Below are positions 21,683 through 52,245 of a stretch of DNA of 64,000 bases, piece by piece. The stretch is taken from assembly GCA_020630775.1 (NCBI GenBank), contig JAHDIN010000003.1:1-64000 (forward strand). Direction: 5' to 3'. The DNA comes from Saprospiraceae bacterium. GTDB lineage: Bacteria > Bacteroidota > Bacteroidia > Chitinophagales > Saprospiraceae. Within the stretch, counting starts at the first letter, position 1; each line of letters starts with the position of its first letter. The translations under genes and the position numbers were made by a program. Below the pieces are notes generated by a model. The model was not told the DNA's origin. It made no database searches and saw only the letters and a program-made list of their open reading frames with translations.

Positions 21683-24600
21683 ATGAGATACTGGATTAAT
21701 TCAGGTATCTATGTACTTACACTTGTATTGTTATCTACGCAAATGACTTTTGCTCAGATAGATAGATATAACTGTAATACATACATACCACCTACCAATG
21801 ACATCTGTAATGATGCCATACCATTCACCGGAATATTGGATGGAGTGACATGTTGCGGAGAAATAGAACAAATCGACCTCTGTGGAGATATGGAAACAGG
21901 AGTTTGGTATGTCTATAATCAATCACTAGAGGGCACCCAATTTAACTTCAGAAATGTTGATATCGAGGGACCAATTGGTGTCGAGATTTACTCTGGAAAC
22001 TGCGATAATTTGAAATTAGAAACCAGATCCGACTGTTCGGGGTTTTCTGATAGAGTCTTTCAGGTGGCCAATTGTAATTCACAAGTATTTATTCATATTT
22101 CTACAAAGGATGAAGGCTGTGGTGCTTTTCAAATAACTGCAACCGATATCCCTGGTTGTGGTGCTGCTGAAAATTGTACAGATATTGGTCCAGAGCATAC
22201 TATTCTGCCAGATACTGATCAGGGAGAAACTTGTATACCTTCATGTTTGAATTTTTCTTGTAATAGTTCTTGTGGAGATCAAAGTGTATGGTTTTTGGTC
22301 AATACAGATGCCTTAGCAACGGAGCTTCAATTTACAATAGATAATGCAGAATTTGATCCACTAATATCTGTAACAAGATTTGGTTCTAGTTGTGCGGATG
22401 GTGATCAAATATTTGTTTGTCAACCCATTGAAAACGGTATCCCTTTACCAATGGATGCCGCTCAAGACGTCAGATATTTAGTTGAAATTTCAAGTGCAGG
22501 AGGAGAGGCTTCAGTATTTGATCTTTGTGTGTCTGCGATAAATGAACCTATTGATTGTGCGGAAGCCTTTTTAACAGCTTCAAGGCCAGAATATCCTTTC
22601 GCTAATCCGAATGGACCTTATTGTCCTGGAGAAACTGTAGAGTTTTGCTATGATTTAGTTTTTAATGTTGATTTTGAAGGAGAAGGAAATAACTGTCAGT
22701 GGCTTCAAGGTATTGTGCCTGTTCTTGGTGGAGGATGGGATTTGAATATGAGAGATTTATCTAGTGACGTTCCAAGTGGTTGGATATACTATCCTGAAGG
22801 CACTGTAGATTATAATGTCAATCACCCAACTATAGCGGCTACAACTGATCCTTTAGGGAGAATTGCATTAGAGCATGGACCAGGAGGTTTATCTCCAGGA
22901 GATTTATTGCCAGGTGGTTGGTGGTTTGTGACAAGTGGTGCAGATCCTGGATGTATTCCTGATGGTGATCCAGATAACATGTGGGGTTTAGATGCCCCGT
23001 GCGGTGGTAGCTCAATAATCCAACACTGTTTTTCTTTGACAGCAAAAGCACCTACAGCAATTGCTGACTGCAATGACAGTTTTTCAAAAGATTTAAGTAT
23101 TTCCATATTTGTTTTTGCAGATGGTGAGACAGGATGTTATGCGAATTCCGCTTGTACTGGTGATACGCCAGCTACATTTAATGGAGAGATTGATTGCAGT
23201 ACTTTATATGATGTTGATGTTGCAGACGCAGAAATTTGTTCTAAAGGATTTGCAAATATACCAGTTGGTGTTGTAGGTGGGTATGAAATTCCAATTCAAG
23301 TTAGAGTTGTAAGTGAAGGCAATACGACAGGTGCTCAAGATTGGGTGTTTGAATCAGGGTCAGGAATTGTTCCAGATCAAATTGTAAATAATGGAAACGA
23401 TATAGAATTGGTTACATATGCGGCAAGCTTATATAATCCAGATTCTGATTGTCCGGTGAATGAAGTATTGTTTGATGTTAGAGTACATCCACATATTGAA
23501 GTCGATGTGCCTACTCGATTGATTTGCGAAGGCACTGCTCAAACTTTTACGGCTTCAGGAAATTATGCGAGTTATAGATGGTATGATCTTGATAACAATG
23601 AAATATCAAATACAACTTCTGCAGATATAGCGAATGCAGGTGTTTATATCCTTCAAGTTGAAGACGGTATTTGTTTCGAAGAATTTGAAGTAGTTATTGA
23701 GTCTGTTTCAAATCTTCCATATGCACTAATTCAGGATGAAGTTAATGTATGTAATAATGATATTGGTACATTGCCAGTTAATATAGATTTAAACGATTTT
23801 CTAGTTGCTTCAGCAAGTGGAAATTGGACAGATAACTTTGGATTCAGAGTAAATGAAGTAGATTTTACAGGTATGTCCGCTGGACCACAAGTCTTTACAT
23901 TTATGACTGATAATGCTGAAGTACCTTGTTTAGATACTACTTACACATTTACTGTAAATGTGGAAGCATGTTCTTGTCCAGAAATTGACTTAGTGCCTTT
24001 GCAAAATATTTGTGTTCCTGATGATGGTTCTGTAATAATCAGTGAATTATTATATGAACCTAATACAGATCCGAATGGTGAATGGTCGCAAACAGCTGGA
24101 CCTTCAACTTTAGGTATTGATCTGGCGTCAAATACATTTTCATCAAGTAATGCTACAATTCCGGGGGTATATGAATTTACTTATACTCTGAATGATCCAA
24201 ATGTTGGCCCTATATGTACAACCTCAGCTTCTATTGAAGTTGAAATTGGCATCCAAGCCTTTGCTGAAATTGTTCCAAACGGAACAGCTTGTAATGCTAT
24301 GGGAGGTGCAGAACCATTTAGTCTGGATTTGGATGACTTTTTTGTATCTGGGTCTACTGGTGATTGGAATGGCAACGGAATCAGTATAGATGCTGATAAT
24401 CGAGTTAGTTTCGATGGTGAAGCGCCAGGTGATTACGAATTTGTTTACTCAACAAATACAGGTTCTGGACTTTGTGGAAATAGTGATTATATTCTGACTA
24501 TTACAGTTCAGGATTGTGCATGTGAGCCTTTAGAATTCTTGCCATTACAAAATGTCTGTCAAGAAGATCAAGAGATTTTATTAACAGATCTTATTGTTGA

Positions 24601-28255: not shown

Positions 28256-28278
28256 AATATTTCATTTTATAATATTCC

Positions 28279-28313
28279 AGGCGCTGTTTTGACATAAAAC
28301 AGCGCCTTTTTTA
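28279..28313 (+). terminator. Rho-independent terminator after giant gene A
   Basis: A perfect 12-bp stem, AGGCGCTGTTTT (28279-28290) with AAAACAGCGCCT (28296-28307), closes on a 5-nt loop and is followed by a T-run. It is much more GC-rich than its surroundings. Confidence 0.92.
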
Positions 28314-28457: not shown

Positions 28458-31400
28458 ATGAAAAAGTACATAACACTTTTTACAATACTTACTTCTTCCA
28501 TTAACTTAATTTATTCTAATGCGGGCACGCCTCCACCTAATGATGATTGTGCTAATGCAATAGATGGTACTGGTGGTGTCTCTGGCGGTACCAATGCTTG
28601 TGCAACCGCTGATGATGCCTTATGTGGCACCCAAGGAGAAGCCACCGTATGGTATTTTTATGATGTATCTGCTGAGCTGGCATCCCTTGAAATAGTAGTC
28701 GCACCAGGTTCGATGAATAATCCTGCCGTAGCATTTTATTCAGCTTGTGGCACTTTTGAAGATGAAGATTGTTCTGGTAGTTTGACAATGACTTGCCTTA
28801 TGCCAGGTACTTATTATATTCAAGTCGGTTCTGAAACAGCTGATGAAGGCGATTTTGATATAAATTTTACTGAAGTAACCAGTATTTCTGAAAGTGATTG
28901 TAACAATGCAATTCAAATAGCTGTAACTCAAACTTGTGTTTTTGAAAATTTTTCAGGATCGACTCAAGATGCATGTCCTGAGGCATCAAACTTTGGCTCA
29001 GGTTGCGACTTTACCGGAAATGAAACAGTTTGGTTTGAGTATACTGTAGGTAGCAATACCTCTTCCATAGATTTAGATAACTTATCTTCTAATCTTGAAT
29101 TAGCTTTCTTAGACGGACCTTGTGGTTCTGATCAATTTGGATGTATATCTGGCACAACGAATATCGCTGTAACTCCTGGCCAAACGTATTGGATCGCAGC
29201 CACCTTAACCACTGGAGGAGGAGGTTTTGATTTTGATTTAAGAGAAAATGAAACCCCACCAAATAATGATTGTACCAGTGCTACTGATATTCAGTCTGGT
29301 GAAAATCAAACAACTTGTTGTGCAACTGGCGGTGGCGGATGCGGTAATGCTGGTGTTTGGTTCGTTTATGCGTTTCCTGATGGCGATGGATCCATTTTTA
29401 CATTAAATAATGTAAGTGTTTCAGGTGATATTGGAATAGAAATATATTCTGGTAGTTGTGGCGGAAATCTAGAATTCAGTGATTGTGGAGGTGGTCCATT
29501 TACAGCTGAGTTAGCGCATTGCGATGGAGATTTTTATATTCATGTTACTTCTGAAGATGATATGTGCGGCGATTTTGACTTAAGTGTCACACCTTTGGTA
29601 GGCTGTACTTTCGGAGAGGATTGTGGGTCGGGTCCAGTTCTAGCCCCTACCACTAATGGACCTGCAGATTGCGCAGATGGTTGTACGCAATACTCTTGCG
29701 ACGGCGAATGTGCGTCTAATGGCGTATGGTTTGAGGTGCAAACCGATGATTTAGCGACAGCCATGAATATTCAAGTAAATGCATCAAATGGATTCGATCC
29801 TGTAGTTAATGTTTATCAGGTAACTTGTGGCGATTCTGATCAAAATATTATTGCTTGCCAAAGTGCAGATAGTGATATTGATCTTGCCGTCTCTGGTAAT
29901 ATTTCTTATTTCATTGAAGTTGCAAGCACTGGTACGCCCGGTGATTTTGAATTGTGCATCTTGACAACCGAATCTCAAGATCTTTGCGCCGAAACGACGC
30001 TCAGTAGTATCGACAGATTAGATTATCCCGATGAGGATCCTGAAGGTCCATATTGTCCAGGCGAAACGGTTAACTTTTGTTTTGATGTAGAATTTACAAT
30101 TGATGCAATAGGTACTGGAAATAACTGCCAATGGCTACAAGGATTGGTGCCTACAGTAGGAGGGGGTTGGGACTTAGCGGTCAATCCAATAAACGGCCCT
30201 GATGATGGACCTGGAGGCAGTTGGTTTTGGTTAGCTGAAGGTTCTGTTGTATATGGGCCCAATGCTTCTTTTTCACATCCGAGATATGAATTAATTACAA
30301 CTGCTAATGGAGACGCAGGTCTCAATTTTGGCCCAGGAGGTCTAGCGGCAGGAGATGCCTTACCAGGTGGATGGTGGTTTGTCTCAGGTGGAAATGGACC
30401 TAATTGTACCAATGATGGAAATCCAAATACAATGTGGGGATTGCCAGGAGGTTGCGGCTCAGGATATACAGTCGAAGTATGTTTCGACCTTACAGTTAAA
30501 GAATTGGATGATATAGCTCAATGCTCTGATCCTGATTTTACAGATTTGTCCGTGAGTCTGTTCACATTTGCAGATGGTCAGACTGGATGCTGGTCCAATA
30601 ATACATGTGGTTTAGATATCGCAGGTGTACAACTAGGTGAAATGGATTGTAGTTCTTTGGTCGAATTGATGGCTGAAGACGAGGAAATATGTAATGAAGA
30701 ATGCTTAGCTATTTTAGTAGAAACCATAGATGGAAGCCCTGCTGATATTTTTGTAACTGTAGTCGATGAAGGCAACACCTCAGGGGCTGAAGATCACGAG
30801 TTTAGTAATGGCGCAGGAACGATTAATGATTGTATAGAAAATTTAGGTACCAGTATTGAAGTGGTTACCTATGAGGCTTATGGTTTACTACCACCTTCTG
30901 TATGCGCTGGACCGATAATTGAAATCCAAGTGATTGTTTATCCAGAGATTGAAATTGAAGTAGAAGAGCCTTATTATATCTGCTACAATATGCCAACGGA
31001 AATCACACCTGAAGTTTCTGGAGGTGATGGTGGACCTTACACTTATAATTGGGAAGATGGAAGTTCTGAATCTTCGATTACATTACCAGAGCCTGCTGAT
31101 CTGGCTCCAGGTGAATATGAAATAATTTTGGAGGTTACAGATGGCAGCCCTATAGGTTGTTCAAAACAACAAATTATTGAGTATGTTATTCTAGAACCAA
31201 TAATTCCCGAGATTGTAAAATCTGCTGATGCGGCTTGTAAAAATGGCATCGATGATATGGTAGAAATGGAATTAATTTTCAATGATACCGGCAATGGTCC
31301 TTATGAGTTTGAATGGAGTTCACAACCTAATGGTCTAGATTTCTTAAATGGAGATGATGAAAATCCAGTAATCATAGATGATGAATCATCTACTGCAAGA

Positions 31401-34400
31401 ACCTACACTGTCTTAGGTACAGTAATAGATGCTTTTGGATGTGAATACACAGCAGAAACAACATTTACAGTTGATAATGGTCCTGATATAGTTTTCGAAA
31501 TTGTAGACTGCATGGGTGGTGAATATGCTTTGTCTGGTTATGAAATAGATGGTCTACAAGTTACATTTGAAATGTATTATGATGCCGACGGAGATTGGGT
31601 TTTTGATGGTACAACTATAGATAATGCAGAATTGGTAAATTCTACTTTTGGAAATGTAATCGGTTATAATACTTCAGATCCTGGAACATATATTTTATTG
31701 GGAATTTCAGCTAATGGTTGTGTTGATTTTACAACCTTAGATGTTTTACCGATACCGACACCTGAATTTGCTGCATTGCCTGATTCTACAGTATGTAATG
31801 GGACAACAGTGAATATTTCGATTACGAATGCGGCACTTTTTGAAGAAATAGAGTGGTCAACCGGGATAGAGGATGATAACATAACTGTGACACCATCTGA
31901 TACAACTACTTATTATGTCGAATTAGTAACTCCAGATGATTGTGAGCTAATCGATAGCATTAGAATAAATGTAAATCCTGAACCTGAAATTGTATTGTCT
32001 GGATCTACGTCTTTTTGCCCTGGTACAAGCACTACATTGAGTTTAGATGGCCCTCCAACTTTTACATATACATGGACCAGCCCGTCAAATCAAATTGTAA
32101 CTGGTCAATCTATACAAGTTTCAGAAGCTGGTATTTGGAATTTTGAAATCACAAGCGATTTAGGTTGTGTGTCAATGGATCAAGTAACCGTTGAAGAATC
32201 AAGTAACTTAGAATTTGAAATCGTAGGCGATAATCTATGTACAGGTGATGTTGTTACTCTGGATGGTGGTGTTTTCAATAGTTATTTGTGGTCGACTGGT
32301 GAAACGACAAGAACCATTGAAGTAACTGTGGGAGGAACGTATTCGCTAGAAGTTTCAGATGGCAATTGTAATGGTACTGATGAAATAACAGTTATTGAGG
32401 TAGCGCCTTTAGACGTGGCTTTAAATGCTTTCTCTACAACTGTTTGCAACGCTGATACAGGAGGAGATCCAACAATGTTGGATTTGACATCTTTCGAAAC
32501 AGGAATAAATGGTCAATGGTTCGATCAAAATGGCTTCCCAATAAATAATCCTAATGAAGTAGATTTTGAAGGACAAGCACCAGCGACTATTTCATATTTG
32601 TTTTCAACTAATGCGGCTACACCTCCTTGTAATGATGAAGATTATCCTTTTGAGATTACAATACAAGACTGTTCATGTCCAAGTGTAGAAATAAATGCAC
32701 CCCAAAACTTTTGTATAGGACCTGATACTTTCGATTTAAATCTAATTAAAGTTACTCCTGAAGCGGGCACTTGGAGTGTGATGCCAGCATCTATGAATAT
32801 CGTAAATAATGAGTTGTTGATTAGTGATGACAATACAGTTGCTGGGCAATACACTTTGGTGTTTACACTTGATACTCCAGGTCCGCAAAGTTGTCCAGAA
32901 GCTAATTCAGTAGAATTTACAGTGTTCTCACCGCCAGAAGCAGAATTGGACTTAAATGTATCTGTATGCAATGCTGATACAGGAAATGGTCCTGACTTTA
33001 TAGATTTAGATGACCTTTATATATCTGGATTACAAGGTGTATGGTCTACAAATGAACCTGGCATCTCTATTGATGCCAATAATGTTGTTTCATTTACTGG
33101 TCAAAATGTAGGTGATTATACGTTCTTTTATTTTATCGAAGAACCTGGTTCTGCATGCGACCCTAAAACAATTCAAGTCCCAGTAAGAGTAAGAGACTGT
33201 AATTGTCCAGACGTGGATATCATCAATATCCCAAATCTTTGTTCAAGTGATGGAGAGCATAATCTTAATGACTTTTTGACAAATCCAGATTCAGAACCAG
33301 GGGTATGGTCTATAACAAATGGCCCAGCAAATGATCTTTTAATTGGGAATTCTTTATTCGTAGGTACAGATGCACCTGCAGGGGAATATGAGGTTACCTA
33401 TACGCTGACCAATTCATTTGGTGCTTCTTGTCAAACTTCATTTACACAAACTTTTAATGTGTTTGGTCCACCTATGTTGCAGTATACTGAATTGGTTACA
33501 GTTTGCAACGGGACAAACATCACCGTATTTCCTTCAGAATTAAATCTTAATACTTTGGTTGATGATCCAACAGGTACTTGGTTTGATCCAGATGGCAATC
33601 CAATTGCAGATCCTACTCTAATAAATTTTATAGGACAAGACCCTGAAGTTTTGGTTTATAGATTTATAACAGATACAGCGCAAAGACCATGTCAAGAACA
33701 AGAAATTGAAGTTGAAATAGAAATCGTTAATTGTAATTGCCCGCCAATTATAATATTGCCTCCGATGCCTTTCTGTAGCGATGAAGGTCCAGTAAATTTA
33801 GATGATCTTTTAGACCCAATAGTTGAGTCTGGAACTTGGACTTATATTGACAATGAACCTAATGTCAACTTAGTTGGTTCCTCGTTAGAAATTGAAAATT
33901 TAGATGGCATCTACACATTCCAATATACGCTGGATAATGTACCGAATGGCTGTACCGATTTTAATAGGGTAGCACTTACTATAGATGCATTTGTAGATGT
34001 GGACTTTCAAAATTCCGCAGAAGTATGTAATGTGCCAAGTCAAAATGGACCTTCTTGCCTAGATTTTAATTCATTTGTCAGAGATGGCACTCAAGGTGAT
34101 TGGACAGTAGCGCCTAACTTTAATGGCGACTTTTCGGATTTAAGTAATGTCTGTTTTGAGGGCTATGATATTGGAGAAACATTTGAGTTTATTTTCACAG
34201 CAAATCCTCCTGGGTCTGTTTGCCCAGATCAGGATTTAAGTTTCACAGTAACAGTCATTGATTGCGATTGTCCTAATTTAACAACAATAGCGCCAATGCC
34301 AATTTGTAATGAAGCTACAGACTTAGATTTAAGTAATCTTCAATCTTCAGGCATAGTTGCCGGCGCATGGTCCGTTGTTGATGGTCCTCAATCATTAGAT

Positions 34401-35846: not shown

Positions 35847-35851
35847 ATGTT

Positions 35852-35916
35852 AAATTAGGGAAAGACAACAGATAATTCTTAATTATTAATTGAGAAAGTC
35901 TTTCCCTAATTTTTTC
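35852..35916 (+). terminator. Terminator after giant gene B
   Basis: A perfect 15-bp inverted repeat pairs AAATTAGGGAAAGAC (35852-35866) with GTCTTTCCCTAATTT (35898-35912), enclosing 31 nt and followed by a T-tract. It starts 6 nt after the stop codon. Confidence 0.85.
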
Positions 35917-35917
35917 C

Positions 35918-35973: not shown

Positions 35974-36057
35974 TCATTTAAAATAAAAACAAATCAACAA
36001 CCAACATTTTGGATTGAAATGTGATATACATTTATATGTACATTCGTTTATTCATAA

Positions 36058-39000: not shown

Positions 39001-39315
39001 TTGAATATATTTATTGACGAAGAAACCAATATTTATATCCCTAATATATTTTCCCCTGAAAGTCAGTCGGGTAACGAAAAAATGTGGATATATCTCTCAT
39101 CTGTCAATGTTAAAGTTTTTGACTTAAGTATTTTCGATAGATGGGGAAATTTGGTAATTTTTCATGCTGAAATCTCAGGTAAGCAAAATATTATTTGGGA
39201 TGGACAATATAGAGGAGAAGATGCAGAGCAGGGCGTTTACTTTTTTACAGCGAAAGTTGTAGATGCTACCAACCAGGAGAAACTGATATCAGGTCATATC
39301 ACCCTTCTACGATAA
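36058..39315 (+). CDS. T9SS type B secreted protein C with P-domain-like N-terminus (1085 aa)
   Basis: The signal peptide is about 1-23 (VFIIILCCCLQVAKTQ). Residues about 25-190 resemble the proprotein convertase P-domain: RLFFEHPQVENLRITLVSPSG, then FEDFNLGSANGTWSLMIENL and GQLSFFEIIF. The middle (about 200-990) is a series of PKD/Ig-like domains with conserved Cys and DxxGC ends (VTDQDGCSN, LDNNGCFG). The last ~95 residues form the type B sorting domain (YIPNIFSP, LSIFDRWGNLVIF, QGVYFFTAKV). It has neither the repeats of A/B nor those of D/E. The P-domain often accompanies secreted subtilases, but no protease domain is present here. The next gene begins 61 nt later without a visible terminator, so the two may be co-transcribed. 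Confidence 0.88.
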   Translation: MNWIIRYVFIIILCCCLQVAKTQSCLISQDIVLPANDSTLVSLDIEGLVNDQLDQGNIICGIRLFFEHPQVENLRITLVSPSGQTITLVGPGTISSGLTQAVEWNVAFLPCGGPAAPDPGFSAQWNNAQPWASFSMYTGAYYPNNGCFEDFNLGSANGTWSLMIENLGPLDGQLSFFEIIFCDPTGISCEPCYLSAGKLQEEFYTTCQQDINLRDLSSFLSADPIIDVSQSFEYILTRNDSILAYDAEITESDTLPPGRYTICGIAYSNEDESIIKDQVLLSDLQQIIDFREACADLTNPCFILDVSPVQNIINIDTTVCSGDTLLIQELRIFDDLDTNILRANQISCDSLIRINVKRIELDAAIVPSANEINCGESIFLNGNSSSSNCPIDQFNWTSTDGNFLNNLGPIAQVDDGGTYSLSIESGACVDSTNVSIATNDNLELQLDSVLLDCSLNLFQVNFNANQELENVAIDGPGTLEIDINLEFFTAILGGRYYIEATRGNCTVFDSIDLRTTAADFDIEVSSTLIDCDNPTSMVQIITDALNPELVFSGPENISDNVVDFILNTAGDYQVTVTDQDGCSNSAAFEILGGSDLPQYVISDLERSCNEASVGLNLQIDTPFDSVLWSGPNSFMSNELNPIPIDTGVYQVEIFGENGCNTNASLVYSIENVVPLTSLLLDTLDCRTDTVDICLEQTDLVVDWILNDTVIGQGICVELNKAGLYDYTFLDNNGCFGEGQFELIDISSSIPQVNGIPTQLTLGCLDTIFEISPQISSANEVSVSWFFQDSLIQNREIIQINESGLYTFETIDLESACSTINTLEVLEDVPEWLADDIVFEIIPAPCAGDSATLIASGTDFGVLEALINNNPISLESSYLLPSGTYEVVLSDDQGCSRTFDILIEDILPLEIDLGEDVFGAPGDIITLSLEVNRELTQIANINWSSSDNLSCDFCLDPELTITENGLLLVEITDENGCISTDSLNIFIDEETNIYIPNIFSPESQSGNEKMWIYLSSVNVKVFDLSIFDRWGNLVIFHAEISGKQNIIWDGQYRGEDAEQGVYFFTAKVVDATNQEKLISGHITLLR

Positions 39316-42300: not shown

Positions 42301-45151
42301 GCAAACTGAGTCAATTACATTCACTTGGAATGAAATTGCAGGCGCTCAAGAATACAAAGTGAATTTTGTTGACAGAGATGGTAATTCAAGTGACTTCACA
42401 TTAACCCCAACAGAAACAACATATGAAGCAACAGGATTAAGTCCAGGCGATGTGGTTTCAATCACTGTAGTGGCTATTCATCCTGATGGTTGCAACTCAG
42501 TTATGGATGCACAAACTTGTGAAGCTAAAAATTGTGAAGTTGTAGATATAACGATGACTTCAGCAACAGGTGATACAGATTTTTGTACTAATGAAACGCC
42601 AAGTGCTGTTAATATTGATATTGTTGTCAATGGTACAGCACCTGCTGCAGGAGCTGGAACATTTAGTGGACAAGGAGTTACTCAATCAGGAGATGATGCA
42701 GTTTTTGATCCTGCTGGTTTGCCTGCTGGGGTCTATACAGTTGATTACTTGTATGTGAATCCAGTCGATAATTGTTCATTTGACGCAAGCTTAGATTTTA
42801 CGATTATTGAAGTGCCGACTCCAAGTATTACGCCAGATGCAACAGTAATTTGTGTAGGTGATGTACTCACATTTGATCACTCAGGTGTAGAAAATGGTCA
42901 AACGTGGAGTATTGATCCAAATAATCCAGATGTTGAGGATAACTTAACCATGAACCAATATGAAATGGCTTGGAGTAACCCAGGCATATATACTATTTCA
43001 TTGGCATATACTGAGGCTGGTTGTAACCCTAATGAAACAATGCCTGTAACAATAGAAGTAAGAGATTCTTTGACTACACCTCAAATTTCATGTGCCAATG
43101 TTGGGCCAGATTTTATCGAATGGAGTTGGAGCCAAGTAGGTACAAATGTTGAATATGAAATTTTAATCGACAATGTACCAATCGAAACAACAATGGATAA
43201 CACCTATAGAGTTGATGGCTTAAACCAAGGAGACGAACGTACTATCACTGTCATGGTAAGAGATGATATCTGTGGAGATAAAATGGCTAGTTTAATGTGT
43301 ACAGCAAACTTCTGTGTGCCACCAGCTTGGGATGTACAGGTCGACAGTGAATACTGTTATGCTGATGGCGATCCTGCTATTGAATTATTAGTCAATGCTA
43401 CAAGTAATGTAGATCCTACAATTAGTGGGCAAGCAGAATGGCAATCTTCTGAAGTCGTCAATAATATGTTTACGCCAGAACCAGGGACAAACACATATAC
43501 TTTTGTGGCTAGATTCGTTGAAGGTTCTTGTACTTTGGATACGCCTATTACTTTTACTGTTTATGATGTGCCACAGTTTACAATGACACAGCCAGATCCT
43601 ATTTGTATTGGCGGTTCAGTAACCTTAGATTATGATTATGTAGGTCCAGGAAATGAAATTACAATATGGGATTTTGATGGTGGTAATGGCGCTGGTTCAG
43701 GACTAGGCCCTCAAGAAGTGTCTTATGATCAAGACGGACAATTTAATGTGACTTTACAAATCAACAATAATGGCTGTCTCTCTGATCCTCAAAATGTATT
43801 GGTAGTTGTAGAACCAGAATTGGAGGCACCGGTGATTAGTTGTGATGGCGCTACAATAACAACTATTGATATATCATGGAATATGGTAGATTGTGCTTCA
43901 GAATATATCGTTTATGTAGACGGGACTGAGTTTGCAAGAACAATGTCTACTAGCCAAACAATCGATGGCTTAACATCTGAGCAAAGCGTTGAGTTAACAG
44001 TAGAGGCGATTTCTGAATGTGCATGTGGCAACTCAGTTTCTGCGCCGGAATCTTGTGAAACCATGCCTTGTCCTATGGAGACTTTTACTTTCAGTTTTGA
44101 TAACTCTCAATCAATATGCTTAGATAATACTGTAGCACCTTTCCAAATTACAGCGACGCCTGATATGGTAGGGGGTAATGGAGTTGGTGTTTGGGATGTA
44201 ACACCTTTCATGGATACTGATGGAAACATAGATCCTTCTTTGGCTTCTGCAGGAACCTTTGACTTAAATTATACTTACACATTGGATGTTTGTAACTTCT
44301 CAACAAGCACTTCAATTACTTTTGTGGAAGCACCATCTATTAATGTCATTGATGTTGTTGATCCTGCGTGTCCTGAAGATTCTGAAGGTGTTATCGCAGT
44401 AGAAGGTGTTGGTGGTACTCCGGATTATATGTATAGCTTAGATGGCGGTGCTTTCCAAGCTGATGGAACATTTACAGGAATAAGTGTTGGATTGCACTCA
44501 GTAACAGTTATGGACGCAAATGGATGCTTGTCAGAACCAGCAGAAAGAACAATAAATGCACCAAGTCAACCAAGTGCTTCGGTTTCGGGTCCAGGGGTTA
44601 TTATACTTGAAAACGACGGTACCTATACACTAAATTTAGATGGCATCGATGTATCACAAATTGATAATATCGAGTGGTTTAATAATGGAGCAAGTGTTTG
44701 TGGTCCAAGTCCAACATGTCTTGAGTACACTTATGCTGGAGCCTTAACGGATGCTGTTATTTACGCTGAGATTACTTACAATGGTGGGTGTTCTTTCTTG
44801 ACTCCTGATTTTGCTGTAGATGTGAAGCAGATTCAAGCGGTATATGTACCAAATACATTTTCGACTCAGCTTAATGATATCAATAATAGATGGACCATGT
44901 TTATAAAGGGTGATGAAGTATTCCCTCAAGACATGCAAGTATTTAATCGTTGGGGAAATTTAGTATTCGAAATTGATTGGAATTTTGCTGAAGGGAATTT
45001 GCCTCCTAGAGAATTGGACTTATGGGATGGTTTTTATGGCTTAGCTCCAGAATCTTCTCCAATAGTTTCAGAAGTCTATGTTTATACTATAAATGTAGAA
45101 ATTGAAGGCATACCAAGAAATATATCTGGAAGTATTACCGTCATTAGGTAA
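39377..45151 (+). CDS. Giant T9SS type B secreted protein D (1924 aa)
   Basis: The signal peptide is about 1-20. Residues 20-180 form a cysteine-rich beta-sandwich (GWYGFVAGNTDMTID, YYILVDGCCGTTC). Residues about 190-480 contain further acidic modules (HIYCPGQEVF, CDSLVNIFAIE) and about 560-715 two PKD/Ig-like domains. A ~250-265-residue superunit of FN3-like, Ig-like and PKD-like domains follows, starting at residues 724, 973, 1239 and 1489; the last copy lacks the PKD part. Then come a SprB-type repeat (GGTPDYMYSLDGG), a linker with FNNGASVCG and the type B sorting domain (MQVFNRWGNLVFEI). Same architecture as protein E. Function inferred as an extracellular adhesive or structural protein. 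Confidence 0.9.
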   Translation: MKKFIFILSLSLFFMSQVHSQIQLPENCGEGTPSCDFDAIDGEMFTNPIYTGNTGGDVCNGGAIHNAGWYGFVAGNTDMTIDITVAPNSCVLPPNPPCNNLGVQIAVWEGCPDSGGSCIAGDADCVPDGGSVSFDATGLQIGGVYYILVDGCCGTTCTSVVDISVTNWEFEIPDANEIEITSADQRSCDDLFGDHIYCPGQEVFIAAEGNNGVNDLNDVGAEWEWTITALSGPGTAGDVEWDTPAGGGTGSPVEYGDLVAGVPGGNTVTMIFNEAGVYEVCVTSINTICDPWDGGQACQEITIINPEEQFFGEFTVCIYEHQINGEEFVPPIFEDPSGMQWEWADGSQGISFGDVNNGIAEAFVGDPDCCTFRQWAIINHVGTIEPEDIEIPLFACQLPYEWEDLIIDEFDAFDGFFHILENGSLEEGFNIEDEENCDSLVNIFAIEIEVGDSLIIGDCGPTGIEVEPDIFSLNNNFDFDLSSPQGIWRDTFPPFNIVATTWEATLPPGGCYTFEYSGFVEDVLTGDDVLCSGSINYKIPDGGTGANPTVIPYDNPICEDEMSGIDLGVNPDPNATSYQWIIPGSYTANSGTSAPTVNVTMNNYVATDTIVLRVGSECGSLDIPFPLELSELPQISVDVPSTGCENEEITFTYTGMTAGVTLNWDVSPGTIVTGTASDATIGVSYPSGGVQTYNLDIVNANNCMDSYADDIDIGAGLPDPVVMCDPNQTSSNQVGFMWADVPGATGYTVNVLSPAGLMGTLNGTSYVVDGLSAGDVIEIEVIVDGSACGSPSDTETCSASSCALPSPDLGNFEDFSLCNGDMNMPVQFTAQAPAGFTGTYSGSGVSASGLFDPDDPSLVIGANTLTFSYVDDNDPNCADARSITVTIGETPDPTFTIDQTTICQNEPVTVTGPSSGNPLYTTSGTQNGNEFTFDTPGSNTISVFVEDPASSCSDELTLTFDVLPALEPLTVNCNEQTESITFTWNEIAGAQEYKVNFVDRDGNSSDFTLTPTETTYEATGLSPGDVVSITVVAIHPDGCNSVMDAQTCEAKNCEVVDITMTSATGDTDFCTNETPSAVNIDIVVNGTAPAAGAGTFSGQGVTQSGDDAVFDPAGLPAGVYTVDYLYVNPVDNCSFDASLDFTIIEVPTPSITPDATVICVGDVLTFDHSGVENGQTWSIDPNNPDVEDNLTMNQYEMAWSNPGIYTISLAYTEAGCNPNETMPVTIEVRDSLTTPQISCANVGPDFIEWSWSQVGTNVEYEILIDNVPIETTMDNTYRVDGLNQGDERTITVMVRDDICGDKMASLMCTANFCVPPAWDVQVDSEYCYADGDPAIELLVNATSNVDPTISGQAEWQSSEVVNNMFTPEPGTNTYTFVARFVEGSCTLDTPITFTVYDVPQFTMTQPDPICIGGSVTLDYDYVGPGNEITIWDFDGGNGAGSGLGPQEVSYDQDGQFNVTLQINNNGCLSDPQNVLVVVEPELEAPVISCDGATITTIDISWNMVDCASEYIVYVDGTEFARTMSTSQTIDGLTSEQSVELTVEAISECACGNSVSAPESCETMPCPMETFTFSFDNSQSICLDNTVAPFQITATPDMVGGNGVGVWDVTPFMDTDGNIDPSLASAGTFDLNYTYTLDVCNFSTSTSITFVEAPSINVIDVVDPACPEDSEGVIAVEGVGGTPDYMYSLDGGAFQADGTFTGISVGLHSVTVMDANGCLSEPAERTINAPSQPSASVSGPGVIILENDGTYTLNLDGIDVSQIDNIEWFNNGASVCGPSPTCLEYTYAGALTDAVIYAEITYNGGCSFLTPDFAVDVKQIQAVYVPNTFSTQLNDINNRWTMFIKGDEVFPQDMQVFNRWGNLVFEIDWNFAEGNLPPRELDLWDGFYGLAPESSPIVSEVYVYTINVEIEGIPRNISGSITVIR
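41546..44330 (+). repeat. FN3/Ig/PKD superunit repeats in protein D
   Basis: Four units open with a conserved Cys at 41546, 42293, 43091 and 43841 (period 747-798 nt). Each starts with an FN3-like domain (FxWxxVxGAxxYxVNV, then a Y/T...xGLxxGD strand and a C-rich end), followed by an Ig-like domain with an early Cys and a PKD-like domain. The fourth unit passes directly into the SprB-type repeat. Confidence 0.8.
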
Positions 45152-45181
45152 CAGAACTTAAATCTAAAATGAAATATATCG

Positions 45182-45216
45182 AAAGTGAGATGCTTATTAA
45201 GTATCTCACTTTTTTA
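45182..45216 (+). terminator. Terminator after protein D
   Basis: Stem AAAGTGAGATGCTT (45182-45195) pairs with AAGTATCTCACTTT (45199-45212) with a single G-T wobble, closing on 3 nt and followed by a T-run. It starts 30 nt after the stop codon. Confidence 0.9.
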
Positions 45217-45498: not shown

Positions 45499-48400
45499 AT
45501 GAAAAAATACTTTACACTCTTAATAGGCCTGTTATTTTATTCATTTTCTTTCGCTGACCCGGTTATTGATACCCAGCCATCAAATCCAAGTCCTTGGGAT
45601 TGTCAAAGTGATGACCCTGATGCGAATACAGACTTCCAAGATTGGTTAACTGAAAATTTAGATCCATCTGATGGAAACCAATTAGAGGCTACTTCAGATT
45701 GCGGTGGTACATTAACTGTCGAAGCAATAGTTGTGAGTACAGGAAGTAGTTATTCTGGATCTTCAGATTGGGAACAGAATGGTTGCGACTGGGAAATAGA
45801 AATTGAATTTCATGTTAGCGATGATTGCAGTTCTGTAGTAGAAGTTTCAGATGCAATTGTTATAACCCTTACAGGCTTACCTCCAAGCATTGATTCTGAC
45901 CCTACTGATGAATTAGTAGATTGTCAAGATATGGACCCTGATGCCAATACAGACTTTCAAACGTGGTTAGCAGAAAACTTAAACCCAGCAGATGGTTCTC
46001 AGATGGAGGCAACTGGCTTATGTTCTGCTATTTCAACTGTAGAAGCTATCGTTTTAAGTTCTGGTAATCCATATGATGGTACTGATGATTGGAACGAAAT
46101 TTCTGAATGTCATTGGGATATTGAAATTGAGTTTGTCGTGACAGATGAATGTGGTAATGTATCTACCTCTAATTCGGCGATTTTTGAGATCATGGATATG
46201 ACCCCACCAACAATTGACGCCATTGAAACAGACCCTGCACCATTTGAATGTAATCTCGGTCCTGAGGAAAATAATATGGAAGATGCTACAGATGTTTTAG
46301 AAGCAATCTTAAATGCTGCTTCAGTATCTGATAACTGTAAAACTTCTTTTGTTATCGGAAACTGGACATTGAATCCAGATCCTTTAGCAATGGATCCAGA
46401 TGATTGGGCAACTTGGGATTGTAATTACGAATATGTAGTCGATGTATTTGTACAAGATGATTGTATGAATCAGTCCGCAACTGAAACGATTACGATTTCA
46501 ATAGTGGATACTGAGCCACCAGTTTGGCCAGATATTATGTCACCCGTAATCATTGATTGTGTAGAAGATCTTGGAGATCCTAATGACTTACAACCTTTGT
46601 CATTAGATCTGTTTGATGAATGTGAAGGTCAGTTTTCGGTATTGAGTCAAGATCCCGTATTAACTGGTTCTAATCCTTGCGAGGGTGAAGTTCAATACTT
46701 TTTTGATGTAGAGGATCAATGTGGGAATGTACACCCTGATAGTCCACTAGAAATAATATTTGAGGTAGATCATGATAATCCGATTGTGTGGTTGGGTAAT
46801 ACAGATGATTATTTACCTGAGGATTTAAGCTTTACAGTATCTCAGGGTGAATGCGATATGGGTTGTTATTTTTTCATGGATTGTAATTGGTATGAAACGC
46901 CAGGTGATCCGAATAGTGAAAGTTGGGGCCCATTTCCTTTGCAGCCTAATGTCCATTTTGGCTGGGATGATCCAAATAATCCTTGTGGAGGAGACCCTAA
47001 TTTTATCTCTTCACATACACCTTGTGATGGCCCTGATGGGCAATGCTTGATGGAAGGTGTAAATACGGTTTCGTACACTGTCTTCCATCCTTGTGATGGT
47101 TCAGTTGCTTTAGAATATGAATTTGAAGTAGAAATAATTTGTGGTAACTGTGCTAATGGATTAGGACTTTACTGTGATGAATGTAATGAAGGCATCAATT
47201 GCTTTACTTGTAATATACAGCAGTTACTTGATGGTTTTGATTCTTGTACACCGCCATTTGATGGTAATCCTTCTGGTCCGACACCTCTCTGTCCTGCAGG
47301 GGGTGGTGGTTCTGGAGAGGCTGTTTCATGGTTTAGATTTATAGCTGGTAGTCCAAATATAACAGTGACTGTTACTGCTGATGAATGTATTGGTCAAGGA
47401 TTAGGAATACAAACTGGTGTATATGATGCTTGTGGAGGGGAGTGCTTAGCTGGTCAAACAATTCCTTGTAATAATGTTCTCGAGGCAGATTTCACATTTA
47501 GTGGTTTGACATTCGGTGCCGACTATTATGTATTTGTAGACGGTTGCGGGGGCTCAGAATGTACTTATTCAGTTACGGTGGAAGGACAAGATGGTTTCGT
47601 TCTAGATGTGCCTGAGTTTGTTGTTGTTAATGAAAATGAACGTCCTTGTCCTGAAGATGAGCAACCAGTAGAAGATGCTTTTTGCCCAGGTCAAGTGATC
47701 AGATTTGATGTGTGGCATGATGGTTCATCTCCGCCAGATAACGGTGCTTATGACCCACCGGGTCCATTTGATCCAGAGGCGAGTTTATGTTTTACTTGGG
47801 ATATAGATCCACCAATCGATGGATATAGTTTGTTTACTTGGGATCAAATTAATGATGGCGGAGGATATACCATTCCTGAGTTGACGATGCCAGATGTAAA
47901 TGAACCGACTGAATTTGAAATTTGCATTCTTTCTGTCGAAGGCCCTTGTGAAGATCCTTGTGATGTGCAAGAATGTGATGATTGTTGTTTGACAATCACG
48001 GTGACGCCTACACCTCCAGAGGTCTGTATAATGGATGTATGTATAGAAGATTTATTGGACCCTAATGGTTTTGATCCGTCTGAAGCTTGGGATGCATTAT
48101 GCAGTCCTTCAATCCAAGGATGGCAAGGTGGAAATATAAGCTTTAGTGATGTCGAAGATGGCGATACTATAGTCGTCGAAGACTTAGTAGATCCTTCTTG
48201 TAATTGTTTTTATGATCAAAAGTTATTTGTCAATATAATAGGCAGTAACCCAGATGACAATTATGAAAAGGTACCTCATACATTCTTTATGTTCGAATGT
48301 CAATTTAAAGAATGTGAATTAGGAGGTCCTTTTGAGCAATATGAGTGGGAATATAATCCGCAAACGGGAGACTCTCACGAGCTTAATATTTTTGATGAGG

Positions 48401-51400
48401 AAAGATGTTTAACCTTATTGCAATTGGCCCATGCGACAGATTGGGATGGAGAACGATGTGACTCAATTATAGAACTAACGATAGAGCCATTTGCAGTTCA
48501 AGCACAACTGAACCCTGGTCCTTGTGGCGCAGGGGGTACACCATATACCTGGGAGTTATTGCTTGATGATGTGCCAGTTGAATGGCCAGAAATCCTGCAA
48601 AATTATAATATAGAATGGGTAGATTGTGATGACCCAGATGGACAGAATTTTCACGCAACAAGTAGTTCGGCTAATGAACCTTTTGTAGTGACTACGGCTA
48701 CTGCAGGAGAATATTGTATTAGAGTAGATTACGCTTTTACTAACTTGAATTTCCCTGAAGGGTCGCCTGCATTGACTGCTGAGTGTTGTGAAATATTTGG
48801 TCCGTACAATTTAACCTCAGATCAAGCAACTATCCCGAATATTCTTGGAGAAACTGAATTTTGTGCTAATGATTTGACAAGTAAAGTATTTATGGTAGAT
48901 GTGCCTGCTGGCAACTCAGATACTTATGTTTGGAATGTTGCAGCAACTGGCGCAGTCATAGAAAGCCAATCTCCAAATGGAGATATGGTTACATTAGATT
49001 TAACGAATCATGATTTTTCTCAGTGTATAGTCATTGACGCCAATACTGCTTGCGGTATTGCTCAAGGCGAGTTATGCTTATCAACAAGAGAAGTACCTGT
49101 ACCAAGCTTTACGATATCAGATACCATTTGCGTAGGTGAAAATGCAATCGCCAACGGATCTTCCATGGGAGGAGGCGCCATTGATCAATGGATATGGACA
49201 CCGCAACCCGTTTCAGGTGGAGGACAAGGTCCTGTAGAGTTTACGTCTGCAACACCGGGAACACAAACAGTCATGTTGTCTGTAATAGATGTAAACGGCT
49301 GTGTTTCTGATCCTGTTGAAATGACTTATGAAGTCATAGCACCTCTAGAAGTACCATTGGTTTCTTGTGGTACAATTACAGATTCTTCGGTAGAATTTGT
49401 TTGGGCAACAGACCCAAATGCTACAGGCTATACAGTTAATGGGACTTTGCCAGGAGGAGGAGTTATAAATGAGAACTTGCCTGCCACTCAAGGAAATTAT
49501 GAGGTAACAGGTTTAGGAGTTGGCGAGTCTGTCTCAATCACTGTGACAGTCATTGGTAATGCGCCTTGTCCTGCTGTAACTTCATCAGAACAAATGTGTA
49601 CTACTGATGATTGCCCGCCAACAGATTTCTCCTTATCTGAAAGTGGTGAAGCATGCTTGGGTGATATGCAAGCAGCATTAAACTGGGTACCAACTGAAAA
49701 CTTAGCCAGTGGAACATTCAGTTTTACAACTGAACCAATGGGTGCATACTACGATTCTAATACTGGTGATATAAATATTGATGGATTAGATGTAGGTGTG
49801 TATACTGTAAGAAGTGATTATGCTTTTGGAAATGGTTGCTCTAGAGAAGGTCCAACCTTTACCTTAACAATAAATCCATTACCAAATCCATCTTTCTTGG
49901 TCGATGATGCATGTTTGGGTGATCCAATAGTTCCAGATTTAAGCAGCAGTACGGGTGTGCCATCTTGGACTTTCAGTCCTGATGATCCGACGATTGACGC
50001 TAATGGCGCCTTTGTATGGGCAACAGCGGGTGATAAAGAAGTAACATTGACAGTTGAATCCACAGATGGATGTACAGACATGTTGACTCAAAGCTTGACA
50101 GTAATTGATACCTTAATTAATGGAGATATTACTTGTACAGCTGGTATAGTTGGTGGAGAAGGTTTTGTTGATTGGGATTGGGATGATGTAGATGGTGCCA
50201 TAGAATATATTGTTACATATGATGTTGATGGTACTATTGAAACTGTTACAGTCACAGATTCTGAATTAAGTATTCCAAATGTACCCGAAGGTGCTGTTGT
50301 ACAAATTTCCATAGAATCAGTTCCTGACGCCAATCATTGTGGTACTGTTCCTTTAAGAAGCGTGTGTCAAGCTGATGCATGTCCAGATATAGAATTCCAA
50401 AGAGACTGGGGCCCATTCTGTTGGTCTCCAGCTGATGGAGCAATTAATATTCCATTGGAAATTCTTGACCCTATGACAGGTATGATGCAGCCAGGAACTA
50501 TTACTTGGACTGACAATAATATGGACGATGATGGTAATTATACGCCAACTATTGGTTCTAATGGTGTTAATAATGTGACATTCACATTTACTAATCAAGA
50601 TGGCTGTCCAAGTTCTGAAAGTATACGTATTGATATATTAGAACAGCCTGATAATAGTATTGTAGATGTACCTACTTTCTGTATAAATTCTTCAGGTCAG
50701 TTAGAGTTAGCTAGTCCGCTGGTTAATGATGAGTCTGTAGAGTGGACGTGGACAGGAGGTGGTTCTGCTTCAGGTGAAGGCCCTCATGATATCTCATTTA
50801 CAGATGCTGGACAGTATGAAGTCACTGCAGTGATCACAAATACCCATCAAGATGGAACTGTTTGTGAAAATACATTTACTACAACATTCTTAGTTGATCC
50901 TCAATTAGATGCACCAATAATTGATTGTTCTTCTAATAATACGGGTGTGACTTTTACTTGGAATTCTGTAGAGAATGCCTCTGAGTATGAGATTTTGGTA
51001 GATGGAGATCCTAGACCTAATCAAGCGGAGACAAATTTCTTTATTTCTGCTATGCCTGGAGAATCATTTACCATTACGGTAACGGCTATTAGTGATAATA
51101 CTTGTGATAATTCTTCAGAAACTGCGGATTGTACAGCAACAAACTGCGAGCCTAGTTTCTTTAATCTAGAGCCTTATGTGGAGTCTCAATGTTTAGACGG
51201 AACTGAGGTGTCACAGCAATTAAATATCGAATTGATCAATGCACCATCCGGAGCACCAGTTGTACCTGGCGCTTGGTCTGGAGAAGGCGTAACTGCTGAT
51301 GGATTATTTAATCCTACAGGCTTAAGTGCAGCTAATTCTATTCCGCTTAATTATTCAGTGGAGTATGATCAGATGTGTATCTATGATACGACGATATTTA

Positions 51401-52245
51401 TGACCTTATATGAAGCGCCAAGTATTGATAATATCGTTCCAATAAACCCAGATTGCTATCAAGATAATCAATCAACTGTTGGTGGTTTGGATATTCAAGC
51501 GAGTGGTGGAACACCACCATATTCTTATCAAGTGCCAAATCAAAATATTCAAAATTCTCCAGCATTTATTGAAGTGCTCAATCCTGGTAGTTATACTGCG
51601 ACGGTTACAGATGCAAATGGTTGTACAGGGGAATTAGATTTTGAAATTTTAGCTGCTATAGAACCGCCTCTTGGCATCGATGGTCCTTTGAGTATTCTTA
51701 ATAGTGAAACTGGTGAGTATACTATTTCGAATTTCCCTTCAGGTCCGGATTTTATGATTGGGGATATTATTTGGTTAGCTAATGATACATTGATTTTATG
51801 TCAGGGGCCAGACTGCGAGACTATCGTTGTTGATGACGAGATTATAGCGCAATTCCCAGACGGTTTTGACTTAAGTGTACAAGTCATCTTTAATGATGAC
51901 TGTTTTCAAGATGCTGAAGTTAGAATTGATATTCAAGGCATCAATAAGTGGTATATACCAAATGTCATCTCTCAATCTGCAGGTAGTGGTAATGATAGAT
52001 GGGTTATGTTTACTAATGGAGGAGACATCCTGGTAGAAGACTTAAAGATTTATGACAGATGGGGAGAATTAGTATTAGTTAAAGACATTAATAGTACAGA
52101 AAGAGAAATCGATTTGACATGGGAAGGCTATTGGGGAGAAGATAATGGTAAGCCAGTTGAGCAAGGTGTATACGTCTATGTTATAAATATGAAAGTAGCC
52201 GGTAGAAATGTTATCGAAGCCGGTGACTTAACGATTCTGCGGTAA
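45499..52245 (+). CDS. Giant T9SS type B secreted protein E (2248 aa), paralogue of D
   Basis: The signal peptide is about 1-19 (LLFYSFSFA). Two ~107-residue acidic repeats follow (about 20-240; DPDANTDFQ(D/T)WL), then HYR-like domains (EPPVWPDIMSP) and a Gly-Pro-Trp-rich region to about 550. A cysteine-rich beta-sandwich like that of D spans about 555-700 (AVSWFRFIAGSPNITV, YYVFVDGCGGSEC). Acidic modules and two PKD/Ig-like domains lead to three FN3/Ig/PKD superunits starting at residues 1290, 1546 and 1810, then a SprB-type repeat (GGTPPYSYQV) and the type B sorting domain (LKIYDRWGELVLV, QGVYVYVI). Extremely acidic, with many Asp-rich DPDD/DPND loops that could bind calcium (inference). 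Ends in its own terminator. Confidence 0.9.
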   Translation: MKKYFTLLIGLLFYSFSFADPVIDTQPSNPSPWDCQSDDPDANTDFQDWLTENLDPSDGNQLEATSDCGGTLTVEAIVVSTGSSYSGSSDWEQNGCDWEIEIEFHVSDDCSSVVEVSDAIVITLTGLPPSIDSDPTDELVDCQDMDPDANTDFQTWLAENLNPADGSQMEATGLCSAISTVEAIVLSSGNPYDGTDDWNEISECHWDIEIEFVVTDECGNVSTSNSAIFEIMDMTPPTIDAIETDPAPFECNLGPEENNMEDATDVLEAILNAASVSDNCKTSFVIGNWTLNPDPLAMDPDDWATWDCNYEYVVDVFVQDDCMNQSATETITISIVDTEPPVWPDIMSPVIIDCVEDLGDPNDLQPLSLDLFDECEGQFSVLSQDPVLTGSNPCEGEVQYFFDVEDQCGNVHPDSPLEIIFEVDHDNPIVWLGNTDDYLPEDLSFTVSQGECDMGCYFFMDCNWYETPGDPNSESWGPFPLQPNVHFGWDDPNNPCGGDPNFISSHTPCDGPDGQCLMEGVNTVSYTVFHPCDGSVALEYEFEVEIICGNCANGLGLYCDECNEGINCFTCNIQQLLDGFDSCTPPFDGNPSGPTPLCPAGGGGSGEAVSWFRFIAGSPNITVTVTADECIGQGLGIQTGVYDACGGECLAGQTIPCNNVLEADFTFSGLTFGADYYVFVDGCGGSECTYSVTVEGQDGFVLDVPEFVVVNENERPCPEDEQPVEDAFCPGQVIRFDVWHDGSSPPDNGAYDPPGPFDPEASLCFTWDIDPPIDGYSLFTWDQINDGGGYTIPELTMPDVNEPTEFEICILSVEGPCEDPCDVQECDDCCLTITVTPTPPEVCIMDVCIEDLLDPNGFDPSEAWDALCSPSIQGWQGGNISFSDVEDGDTIVVEDLVDPSCNCFYDQKLFVNIIGSNPDDNYEKVPHTFFMFECQFKECELGGPFEQYEWEYNPQTGDSHELNIFDEERCLTLLQLAHATDWDGERCDSIIELTIEPFAVQAQLNPGPCGAGGTPYTWELLLDDVPVEWPEILQNYNIEWVDCDDPDGQNFHATSSSANEPFVVTTATAGEYCIRVDYAFTNLNFPEGSPALTAECCEIFGPYNLTSDQATIPNILGETEFCANDLTSKVFMVDVPAGNSDTYVWNVAATGAVIESQSPNGDMVTLDLTNHDFSQCIVIDANTACGIAQGELCLSTREVPVPSFTISDTICVGENAIANGSSMGGGAIDQWIWTPQPVSGGGQGPVEFTSATPGTQTVMLSVIDVNGCVSDPVEMTYEVIAPLEVPLVSCGTITDSSVEFVWATDPNATGYTVNGTLPGGGVINENLPATQGNYEVTGLGVGESVSITVTVIGNAPCPAVTSSEQMCTTDDCPPTDFSLSESGEACLGDMQAALNWVPTENLASGTFSFTTEPMGAYYDSNTGDINIDGLDVGVYTVRSDYAFGNGCSREGPTFTLTINPLPNPSFLVDDACLGDPIVPDLSSSTGVPSWTFSPDDPTIDANGAFVWATAGDKEVTLTVESTDGCTDMLTQSLTVIDTLINGDITCTAGIVGGEGFVDWDWDDVDGAIEYIVTYDVDGTIETVTVTDSELSIPNVPEGAVVQISIESVPDANHCGTVPLRSVCQADACPDIEFQRDWGPFCWSPADGAINIPLEILDPMTGMMQPGTITWTDNNMDDDGNYTPTIGSNGVNNVTFTFTNQDGCPSSESIRIDILEQPDNSIVDVPTFCINSSGQLELASPLVNDESVEWTWTGGGSASGEGPHDISFTDAGQYEVTAVITNTHQDGTVCENTFTTTFLVDPQLDAPIIDCSSNNTGVTFTWNSVENASEYEILVDGDPRPNQAETNFFISAMPGESFTITVTAISDNTCDNSSETADCTATNCEPSFFNLEPYVESQCLDGTEVSQQLNIELINAPSGAPVVPGAWSGEGVTADGLFNPTGLSAANSIPLNYSVEYDQMCIYDTTIFMTLYEAPSIDNIVPINPDCYQDNQSTVGGLDIQASGGTPPYSYQVPNQNIQNSPAFIEVLNPGSYTATVTDANGCTGELDFEILAAIEPPLGIDGPLSILNSETGEYTISNFPSGPDFMIGDIIWLANDTLILCQGPDCETIVVDDEIIAQFPDGFDLSVQVIFNDDCFQDAEVRIDIQGINKWYIPNVISQSAGSGNDRWVMFTNGGDILVEDLKIYDRWGELVLVKDINSTEREIDLTWEGYWGEDNGKPVEQGVYVYVINMKVAGRNVIEAGDLTILR
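45601..46242 (+). repeat. Two ~107-residue N-terminal repeats in protein E
   Basis: Two adjacent units start at Cys codons 45601 and 45922 (period 321 nt). Both read DPDANTDFQ, WL(T/A)ENL, DG(N/S)Q(L/M)EAT, TVEAIV(V/L)S and W(E/D)IEIEF in the same order. They are diverged at the DNA level, so the duplication is not recent. Confidence 0.85.
49366..51420 (+). repeat. FN3/Ig/PKD superunit repeats in protein E
   Basis: Three units of the type seen in protein D open at Cys codons 49366, 50134 and 50926 (period 768-792 nt). FN3-like parts read NATGYTVNG, AIEYIVTY and ASEYEILV at equivalent positions. The third unit lacks the PKD-like part before the SprB-type repeat, just as the last unit of D does. 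Confidence 0.8.

What the first reader, a model, noticed from the sequence alone, without database searches (positions are those of the whole stretch)
21683..52245. 30-kb tandem array of five giant T9SS type B proteins
Five consecutive same-strand genes encode 9909 residues of secreted, acidic, multi-domain protein. All end in CHU_C domains. They fall in two paralogous pairs (A/B and D/E) around a single protein with a P-domain. Most are separated by their own terminators, so relative amounts could be controlled singly. This resembles a module-shuffled toolkit for surface adhesion, gliding or matrix. I cannot assign it to a described system.
Basis: partly seen in the sequence, partly recalled or inferred. 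Interest (0 to 1): 0.75.

Follow-up and report, generated by a model that had tools for sequence, protein, structure and literature searches.

The report
Conserved array of giant surface proteins
Five very large proteins that these bacteria probably display on their surface are encoded side by side, in an order kept in related bacteria; two of them differ between relatives in the number of repeats, so they look like a set of sticky arms of different reach, which remains to be tested.

Summary
Five adjacent same-strand genes (A-E, 9,909 aa) have signal-peptide-like starts and type-B T9SS tails (D's is below curated cut-offs). A/B are paralogs (37-39% identity), D/E likewise (28%); C alone has a P-domain. 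A/B-C pairs also occur in other genera. Limits: A and B are both present in only 4 of 7, and in one of those (G006) they are not adjacent.

New: A is a genus-level duplicate of B (clade support 100/100). Its ~175-aa stalk unit numbers 2-9, with neighbours up to 92% identical; B-type genes of the genus keep 4 old copies in 6 of 6. A/B carry an unnamed ~208-aa head domain (AlphaFold pLDDT 90) without credible Pfam or PDB fold match. No PorP/SprF shuttle gene is linked.

Best reading: a set of T9SS-anchored head-stalk adhesins served by unlinked shuttles; static or gliding is open. New variant of a known kind; no function was tested.

The parts
21683..28255 (+). Gene A, 2190 aa: two PPC-like domains, CPG head, PKD_5-type Ig, six ~175-aa VCN stalk units, SprB-like pre-tail region, type-B tail; length-variable duplicate of B
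22604..23227 (+). CPG head domain of A (residues 308-515)
23747..26947 (+). six VCN stalk units of A (residues 689-1755)
28279..28313 (+). terminator hairpin after A
28458..35846 (+). Gene B, 2462 aa: four PPC-like domains, CPG head, Ig-like domains, four VCN units, SprB-like pre-tail region, type-B tail
35852..35911 (+). terminator hairpin after B
35917..35974 (+). 8.3 perfect copies of a 7-bp unit upstream of C
36058..39315 (+). Gene C, 1085 aa: P-domain head, Ig-like stalk, type-B tail; 1020-1111 aa in nine genus genomes
39377..45151 (+). Gene D, 1924 aa: head shared with E, four Ig/PKD/fn3 stalk units, SprB-like region, weak type-B tail; probably co-transcribed with C
45181..45213 (+). terminator hairpin after D
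   Evidence: 0 of 200 shuffles; in the permissive scan of the whole gap 1 of 12 shuffles reached it
45499..52245 (+). Gene E, 2248 aa: HYR-like repeats, D-type head, three strong Ig/PKD/fn3 units, type-B tail
52271..52305 (+). terminator hairpin after E
20790..21383 (-). x197: small protein with a signal-peptide-like start, barrel-like by eye only, divergent from A, kept at the left edge of the locus; possible partner, role untested
18260..20725 (+). TonB-dependent receptor, left flank (after a PnuC-type transporter and an AAA_28 protein); probably unrelated uptake genes
52312..53013 (-). cytidylate kinase cmk, right boundary

Best explanation
A-E are a co-inherited set of T9SS type-B cell-surface adhesins built as head, stalk and anchor. 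Each is made with a Sec signal, leaves through the T9SS translocon by its C-terminal tail, and is held at the outer membrane by PorP/SprF-like shuttles encoded elsewhere. Distinct N-terminal heads (PPC/CPG in A and B, P-domain in C, the D/E head, plus HYR-like repeats in E) are displayed on Ig/PKD/fn3 stalks of different length. Separate transcription of A, B, C-D and E lets amounts differ, and change of copy number in the stalks of A and D tunes reach during evolution. Shown: gene order, domains, paralogy, terminator pattern, difference in repeat number. Inferred: surface anchoring, shuttle use, binding by the heads. Not decided: static adhesion or movement on the gliding track.
For: Type-B tails and signal-like N-termini by eye. 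SprA over cut-off in 13 of 14 genus genomes and GldG in 12 of 14; the own genome has GldG but only a sub-threshold SprA match, and is 53.9% complete. Order A/B-type, C, D in 7 of 7 readable genus genomes, pieces of it in five more. A/B-C pairs in other genera: G025 and G017, L059, L061, L086. VCN units 6, 2, 7 and 9 in four complete A proteins against 4 in 6 of 6 B-type proteins of the genus. D units range 4-6 in seven genomes, one adjacent pair 96% identical. Heads conserved. Hairpin before C beyond 12 shuffles in 6 of 7 genomes, none in the short C-D gap in 5 of 5. [quoted passage not shown] johnsoniae share one unlinked shuttle (PMC12618676: passages and section 11); PorP-like proteins hold the cargo (PMC9143113: passages).
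Against: No function, ligand or expression data. The CPG head has no solved relative, so binding is not shown. D's tail is below both curated cut-offs. Tail identities among A-E are only 30-48%, so one common shuttle is not assured. In G006 A and B are not neighbours; in G007 cmk is not beside E and in G008 x197 lies beside a C-like fragment. G001 and G012 show only a match to C's tail part, and G001 and G004 no convincing A-E at all; the contigs of G001 and G004 end at the locus edges. Outside the genus VCN counts of B-type genes vary (1-5) and C-like proteins are mostly longer (1077-2557 aa). Repeat counts come from MAG assemblies, where near-identical repeats can collapse or break (A is split over two contigs in G006).
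Confidence: 0.62

Rival explanations
1. A-E co-assemble into one composite extracellular structure (fibre, sheath or surface layer), C being a fixed-length hub or cap and A and D variable spacers; the conserved order reflects one assembly.
For: Several giants kept together at one place in the genus and partly beyond; C nearly constant in the genus (1020-1111 aa) while A and D vary; 36-93 Cys per protein, allowing disulfide cross-links.
Against: Separate terminators rather than one operon, C-D excepted; three of seven genomes do with one A/B gene, and A lies apart from B in G006; no shared assembly domain identified; no structural data.
Confidence: 0.2
2. A-E are mobile gliding adhesins of the SprB kind, carried on the Gld/Spr track, each suited to another surface.
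For: GldG in 12 of 14 and SprA in 13 of 14 genus genomes over cut-off; weak SprB-repeat matches before the tail in B, D and E; SprB and another type-B protein move helically in F. johnsoniae (PMC12618676, section 11).
Against: No linked PorP/SprF gene, SprB matches are below cut-off, a separate 5,487-aa ORF of the same genome repeatedly matches D's SprB-like region, and some type-B tails place cargo at static sites. Gliding of this genus is not known.
Confidence: 0.25
3. The array is a neutral by-product of tandem duplication of T9SS genes with no joint function.
For: A/B and D/E are paralogs side by side; three of seven genomes have a single A/B gene.
Against: C is not a paralog of the others over its head, yet keeps its place between A/B and D in 7 of 7 genus genomes, and A/B-C pairs recur in other genera.
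Confidence: 0.1

Closest known systems
SprB-SprF gliding adhesin of Flavobacterium johnsoniae (type-B T9SS substrate with its shuttle)
   Same: giant repetitive T9SS substrate with a type-B tail; weak SprB-repeat matches in B, D and E
   Different: no linked PorP/SprF gene; several giants at one locus; CPG/PPC, P-domain and D/E heads on Ig/PKD/fn3 stalks; a separate 5,487-aa ORF of the same genome matches D's SprB-like region several times
Orphan type-B substrates of F. johnsoniae (Fjoh_1123, Fjoh_1720, Fjoh_4934) sharing shuttle Fjoh_1677
   Same: type-B tails without a linked shuttle gene
   Different: their tails share over 44% identity (PMC12618676, passage), while A-E share 30-48%; no array reported in the passages read
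Grappling-hook proteins GhpA (Aureispira) and GhlA (Litorilinea)
   Same: giant extended surface proteins; GhpA is from a Saprospirales member, and an Aureispira-titled contig (L068) also encodes a CPG giant of 3,109 aa
   Different: GhpA is 5,898 aa and GhlA is 49 DUF11 domains (PMC13319060, passages); A-E are at most 2,462 aa and show no DUF11 match

Membership tests
T9SS type-B substrates | C-terminal domain over the curated cut-off of CHU_C (PF13585) or TIGR04131 | tested here: met
   A, B, C, E pass PF13585; C (and A in one of two scans) pass TIGR04131; D passes neither (23.0 and 12.8 bits)
T9SS type-B substrates | T9SS translocon in the organism | tested here: met
   SprA over cut-off in 13 of 14 genus genomes; the window's own incomplete genome is the one without
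T9SS type-B substrates | PorP/SprF-like gene next to the substrate gene (common, not universal) | tested here: not met
   none on the window's contig, 9 elsewhere; none of the listed genus matches is on an array contig, the list being cut
SprB gliding adhesin | SprB repeats over cut-off (PF13573, 28 bits) | tested here: not met
   B 17.7, D 15.3, E 15.5 bits; none listed for A and C
SprB gliding adhesin | movement along the cell surface | not testable with these tools
   needs live cells
GhpA/GhlA grappling hook | DUF11 beads over ~5,900-6,600 aa | tested here: not met
   no DUF11 in Pfam scans at E<=0.1; longest protein 2,462 aa (sizes and DUF11 of GhlA from passages of PMC13319060)
BapA/Bap/LapF large adhesins | NF045619 over cut-off (180 bits) | tested here: not met
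   A: 20.1 bits
P-domain proteins | PF01483 over cut-off | tested here: met
   C: 23.3 bits, cut-off 21, partial (profile positions 8-35 of 86)

The most novel reading that the evidence does not exclude
The locus encodes one composite extracellular appendage of Saprospirales-like bacteria: giants kept in order, with a head domain of so far unmatched fold, a P-domain hub of nearly fixed length in the genus, and a lineage-specific extra arm (A) whose length evolves fast by tandem duplication, all exported through unlinked shuttles.
Probability: 0.18. Interest if true: 0.75.

Novelty: new variant of a known kind. Interest (0 to 1): 0.5.

Why it matters
Some Saprospiraceae live attached to other bacteria or inside flocs (PMC9304909, passages), and I know of no adhesin identified for them (recall, not searched exhaustively). 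A conserved multi-giant locus with a length-stable and a length-variable paralog in one genus gives a natural experiment on what stalk length does. It also offers orphan type-B substrates for finding shared shuttles, and an unnamed, well-predicted head domain to solve.

Tried and rejected
Comparing the A/B head with the D/E heads: no similarity (hhalign E 0.63 and 0.64), so there are at least two head types. Fold match for the CPG head: the 313-aa model gave 16 PDB rows at E<=0.001, all generic Ig-like or similar chains with TM-scores of at most 0.33 in the 50 rows shown; the 209-aa model gave 0 PDB and 0 viral rows at E<=0.001. PDB sequence searches: none for B, C or E at 0.01 and none for the CPG profile at 1; one weak row for A (E 0.096) and three fn3 rows for D (best tenascin-R, 0.0035). 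Pfam on the CPG alignment: PKD_5 in 11 of 13 members, lying in the Ig domain behind the head where shown, and three other families with one member each at E 0.14-0.32, taken as chance. GhpA-type hook and SprB identity rejected as above. Literature: searches listed nothing that I recognised as this array (open-access library; listings, with passages of four papers and one section read).

Full report
WHAT IS THERE. Genes A-E are open, adjacent and on one strand, total 9,909 aa. They are very acidic and poor in lysine. Four of five tails pass the CHU_C cut-off; D's does not. With 28 tail genes placed at random, runs of five or more came in 0 of 20,000 trials and runs of four or more in 3 (2,000 genes) or 0 (2,700 genes); D is not among the 28.

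ARCHITECTURE. A has two PPC-like domains, B four. Both then carry a ~208-aa domain, here called CPG after its CPGETV start, followed by a PKD_5-type Ig domain. Stalks follow: a ~175-aa unit (VCN) in A and B, and an Ig/PKD/fn3 unit in D and E. The D and E heads are homologous (hhalign E 5e-70) but not similar to CPG. C has the only P-domain. The head and repeat models were built from these same proteins, so their scores describe rather than test homology.

TRANSCRIPTION. Hairpins with U-runs follow A, B, D and E; none lies between C and D. Across relatives, the gap before C holds a hairpin better than all of 12 shuffles in 6 of 7 genomes (in G002 2 of 12 shuffles reached it). The short C-D gap shows nothing stronger than -3.2 kcal/mol in 5 of 5 genomes; in G005 and G003 that gap is longer, and G005 has a hairpin there beyond its 12 shuffles. 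D-E is mixed: beyond all shuffles in 3 of 6, reached by 1 or 2 of 12 in two, absent in G005. A-B: beyond all in 2 of 3, reached by 1 of 12 in the third (first pass).

CONSERVATION WITHIN THE GENUS. In the 7 genomes where a long stretch was read (G000, G002, G003, G005, G006, G009, G013) an A/B-type gene, C and D follow each other in 7 of 7. E follows D in 6 of 7; in G009 the contig ends 325 bases into a next ORF that did not match E, and E pieces lie on other contigs. Both A and B are present in 4 of 7 and adjacent in 3 of those 4: in G006 unrelated ORFs follow A and precede B. A single A/B gene is present in 3 of 7. x197 lies beside the first A/B gene in 7 of 7 (for G006 and G013 on the separate contig that carries A), the TonB receptor behind it in 6 of 7 (G002 has four other ORFs in between). 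Of the other 7 genus genomes, G007 and G010 show A/B-C; G011 C-D, x197-A/B and E-cmk; G012 x197-A/B and E-cmk; G008 a D/E-type gene beside cmk; the contigs of G001 and G004 end at the locus edge. Against: G008 has x197 beside a C-like fragment, G007 has cmk away from E, and G012 and G001 show only a match to C's last ~240 residues.

BEYOND THE GENUS. I read 15 stretches from 12 other-genus genomes, chosen because they had hits. A/B-C adjacency is in 2 (G025; G017, which also has cmk downstream). C- and D-like genes are neighbours in G025, G015, G014 and G026, in reversed order in the last two. Of 35 CPG loci, 15 have a CPG giant with a tail and a following gene: 8 are followed by a C-type gene, 2 by B, 5 by something else. 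Three of the 8 (L059, L061, L086) are not contigs. cmk lies beside a tailed D/E-type gene in 9 of 11 genus loci held, beside a tailed giant in 3 of the 19 other loci held (G029, G032, G035), and also in G030 and G017.

EVOLUTION. In a 26-row tree of the CPG region the five A sequences form one clade (100/100) and B does not. The genes found outside the genus are not in the A clade, so I take A as the derived copy. VCN units over 100 bits: A has 6 (G000), 2 (G002), 7 (G013), 9 (G009) and 4 and 6 on two contig ends (G006). B-type proteins have 4 in 7 of 7 examined that way (six in the genus, and G015). With another threshold (70 bits) more distant B-type genes show 4 (L059, L062), 3 (L061, L068), 5 (L072), at least 4 (L075) and 1 (L085, L086), so the fixed number is a genus-level statement. 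Highest identity between units is 46-92% in A proteins with more than two units (29% in G002, with two) and 31-37% in the B-type ones. D units number 4, 5, 4, 4, 6, 6, 5, with one adjacent pair at 96% in G009. C is 1,020-1,111 aa in nine genus genomes, but 1,077-2,557 aa in the C-like genes elsewhere.

HEAD DOMAIN. The CPG head is predicted well (pLDDT 90.1, pTM 0.87, 36 sequences) but has no PDB or viral fold match at E<=0.001, and no credible Pfam match of its own. The one genome-contig scan gave 35 loci: 30 titled Saprospiraceae or Aureispira, 5 titled Bacteroidetes. It used exact peptide patterns, so distant relatives would be missed. The domain also occurs in shorter proteins in which no stalk was found (719 aa in L073 and L077).

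EXPORT. No PorP/SprF gene is on the window's contig; 9 are elsewhere in the genome. Genus-wide, none of the listed matches falls on an array contig; the list was cut at its weak end. In F. johnsoniae 9 of 12 type-B substrate genes are next to an SprF-like gene, the three orphans share one shuttle, and tails direct cargo to moving or static sites (PMC12618676, passages and section 11). PorP-like proteins hold the cargo (PMC9143113, passages). A-E are therefore expected to use unlinked shuttles; their tails share 30-48% identity, so one or several are possible.

VERDICT. The most likely role is a set of surface adhesins with fixed heads and evolving reach. It differs from the described systems compared here in the number of giants at one conserved site, the missing linked shuttle, the unnamed head domain and the pairing of a stable with a variable paralog. 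Function is inferred, not shown.

Noticed in passing
window 35917-35974: 8.3 perfect copies of a 7-bp unit between the B terminator and gene C; such repeats can cause on/off switching, so C-D expression could vary between cells.
   Followed up: no
window 20790-21383 (-): x197 is found in 11 of 14 genus genomes, one place per genome; it stands beside an A/B gene in nine, beside a C-like fragment in G008, and at a contig end in G004. Clear matches elsewhere among 60 genomes only in G015 and G030, with five weak ones. Possible partner of the giants.
   Followed up: partly
window 16900-20725: PnuC-type transporter, AAA_28 protein and TonB receptor in a row, kept in relatives: looks like a nicotinamide riboside uptake set (role recalled, not tested).
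   Followed up: no
G000:C7 around 41367-46133; G001:C57 around 29208-33338: ORFs of 5,487 and 5,968 aa with repeated matches to the SprB-like region of D: perhaps the SprB-type giant of this genus, separate from the array.
   Followed up: no
L073, L077, L079: A second CPG family of 717-719 aa (one PPC plus CPG, no stalk found) sits in a similar gene neighbourhood in all three loci.
   Followed up: no
window 57864-58898 (+): Fatty acid desaturase with a sphingolipid Delta4-desaturase N-terminal domain (PF08557, 46.4 bits), kept near cmk in several relatives.
   Followed up: no
G013:C23:22715-23398; G008:C225:2760-3440: In these two genomes cmk runs in the same direction as the neighbouring giant instead of against it, though its position is kept.
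   Followed up: no
G006:C2 and G006:C6: Genes without a match in the window follow A and precede B, so A and B have been parted or an insertion lies between them.
   Followed up: no
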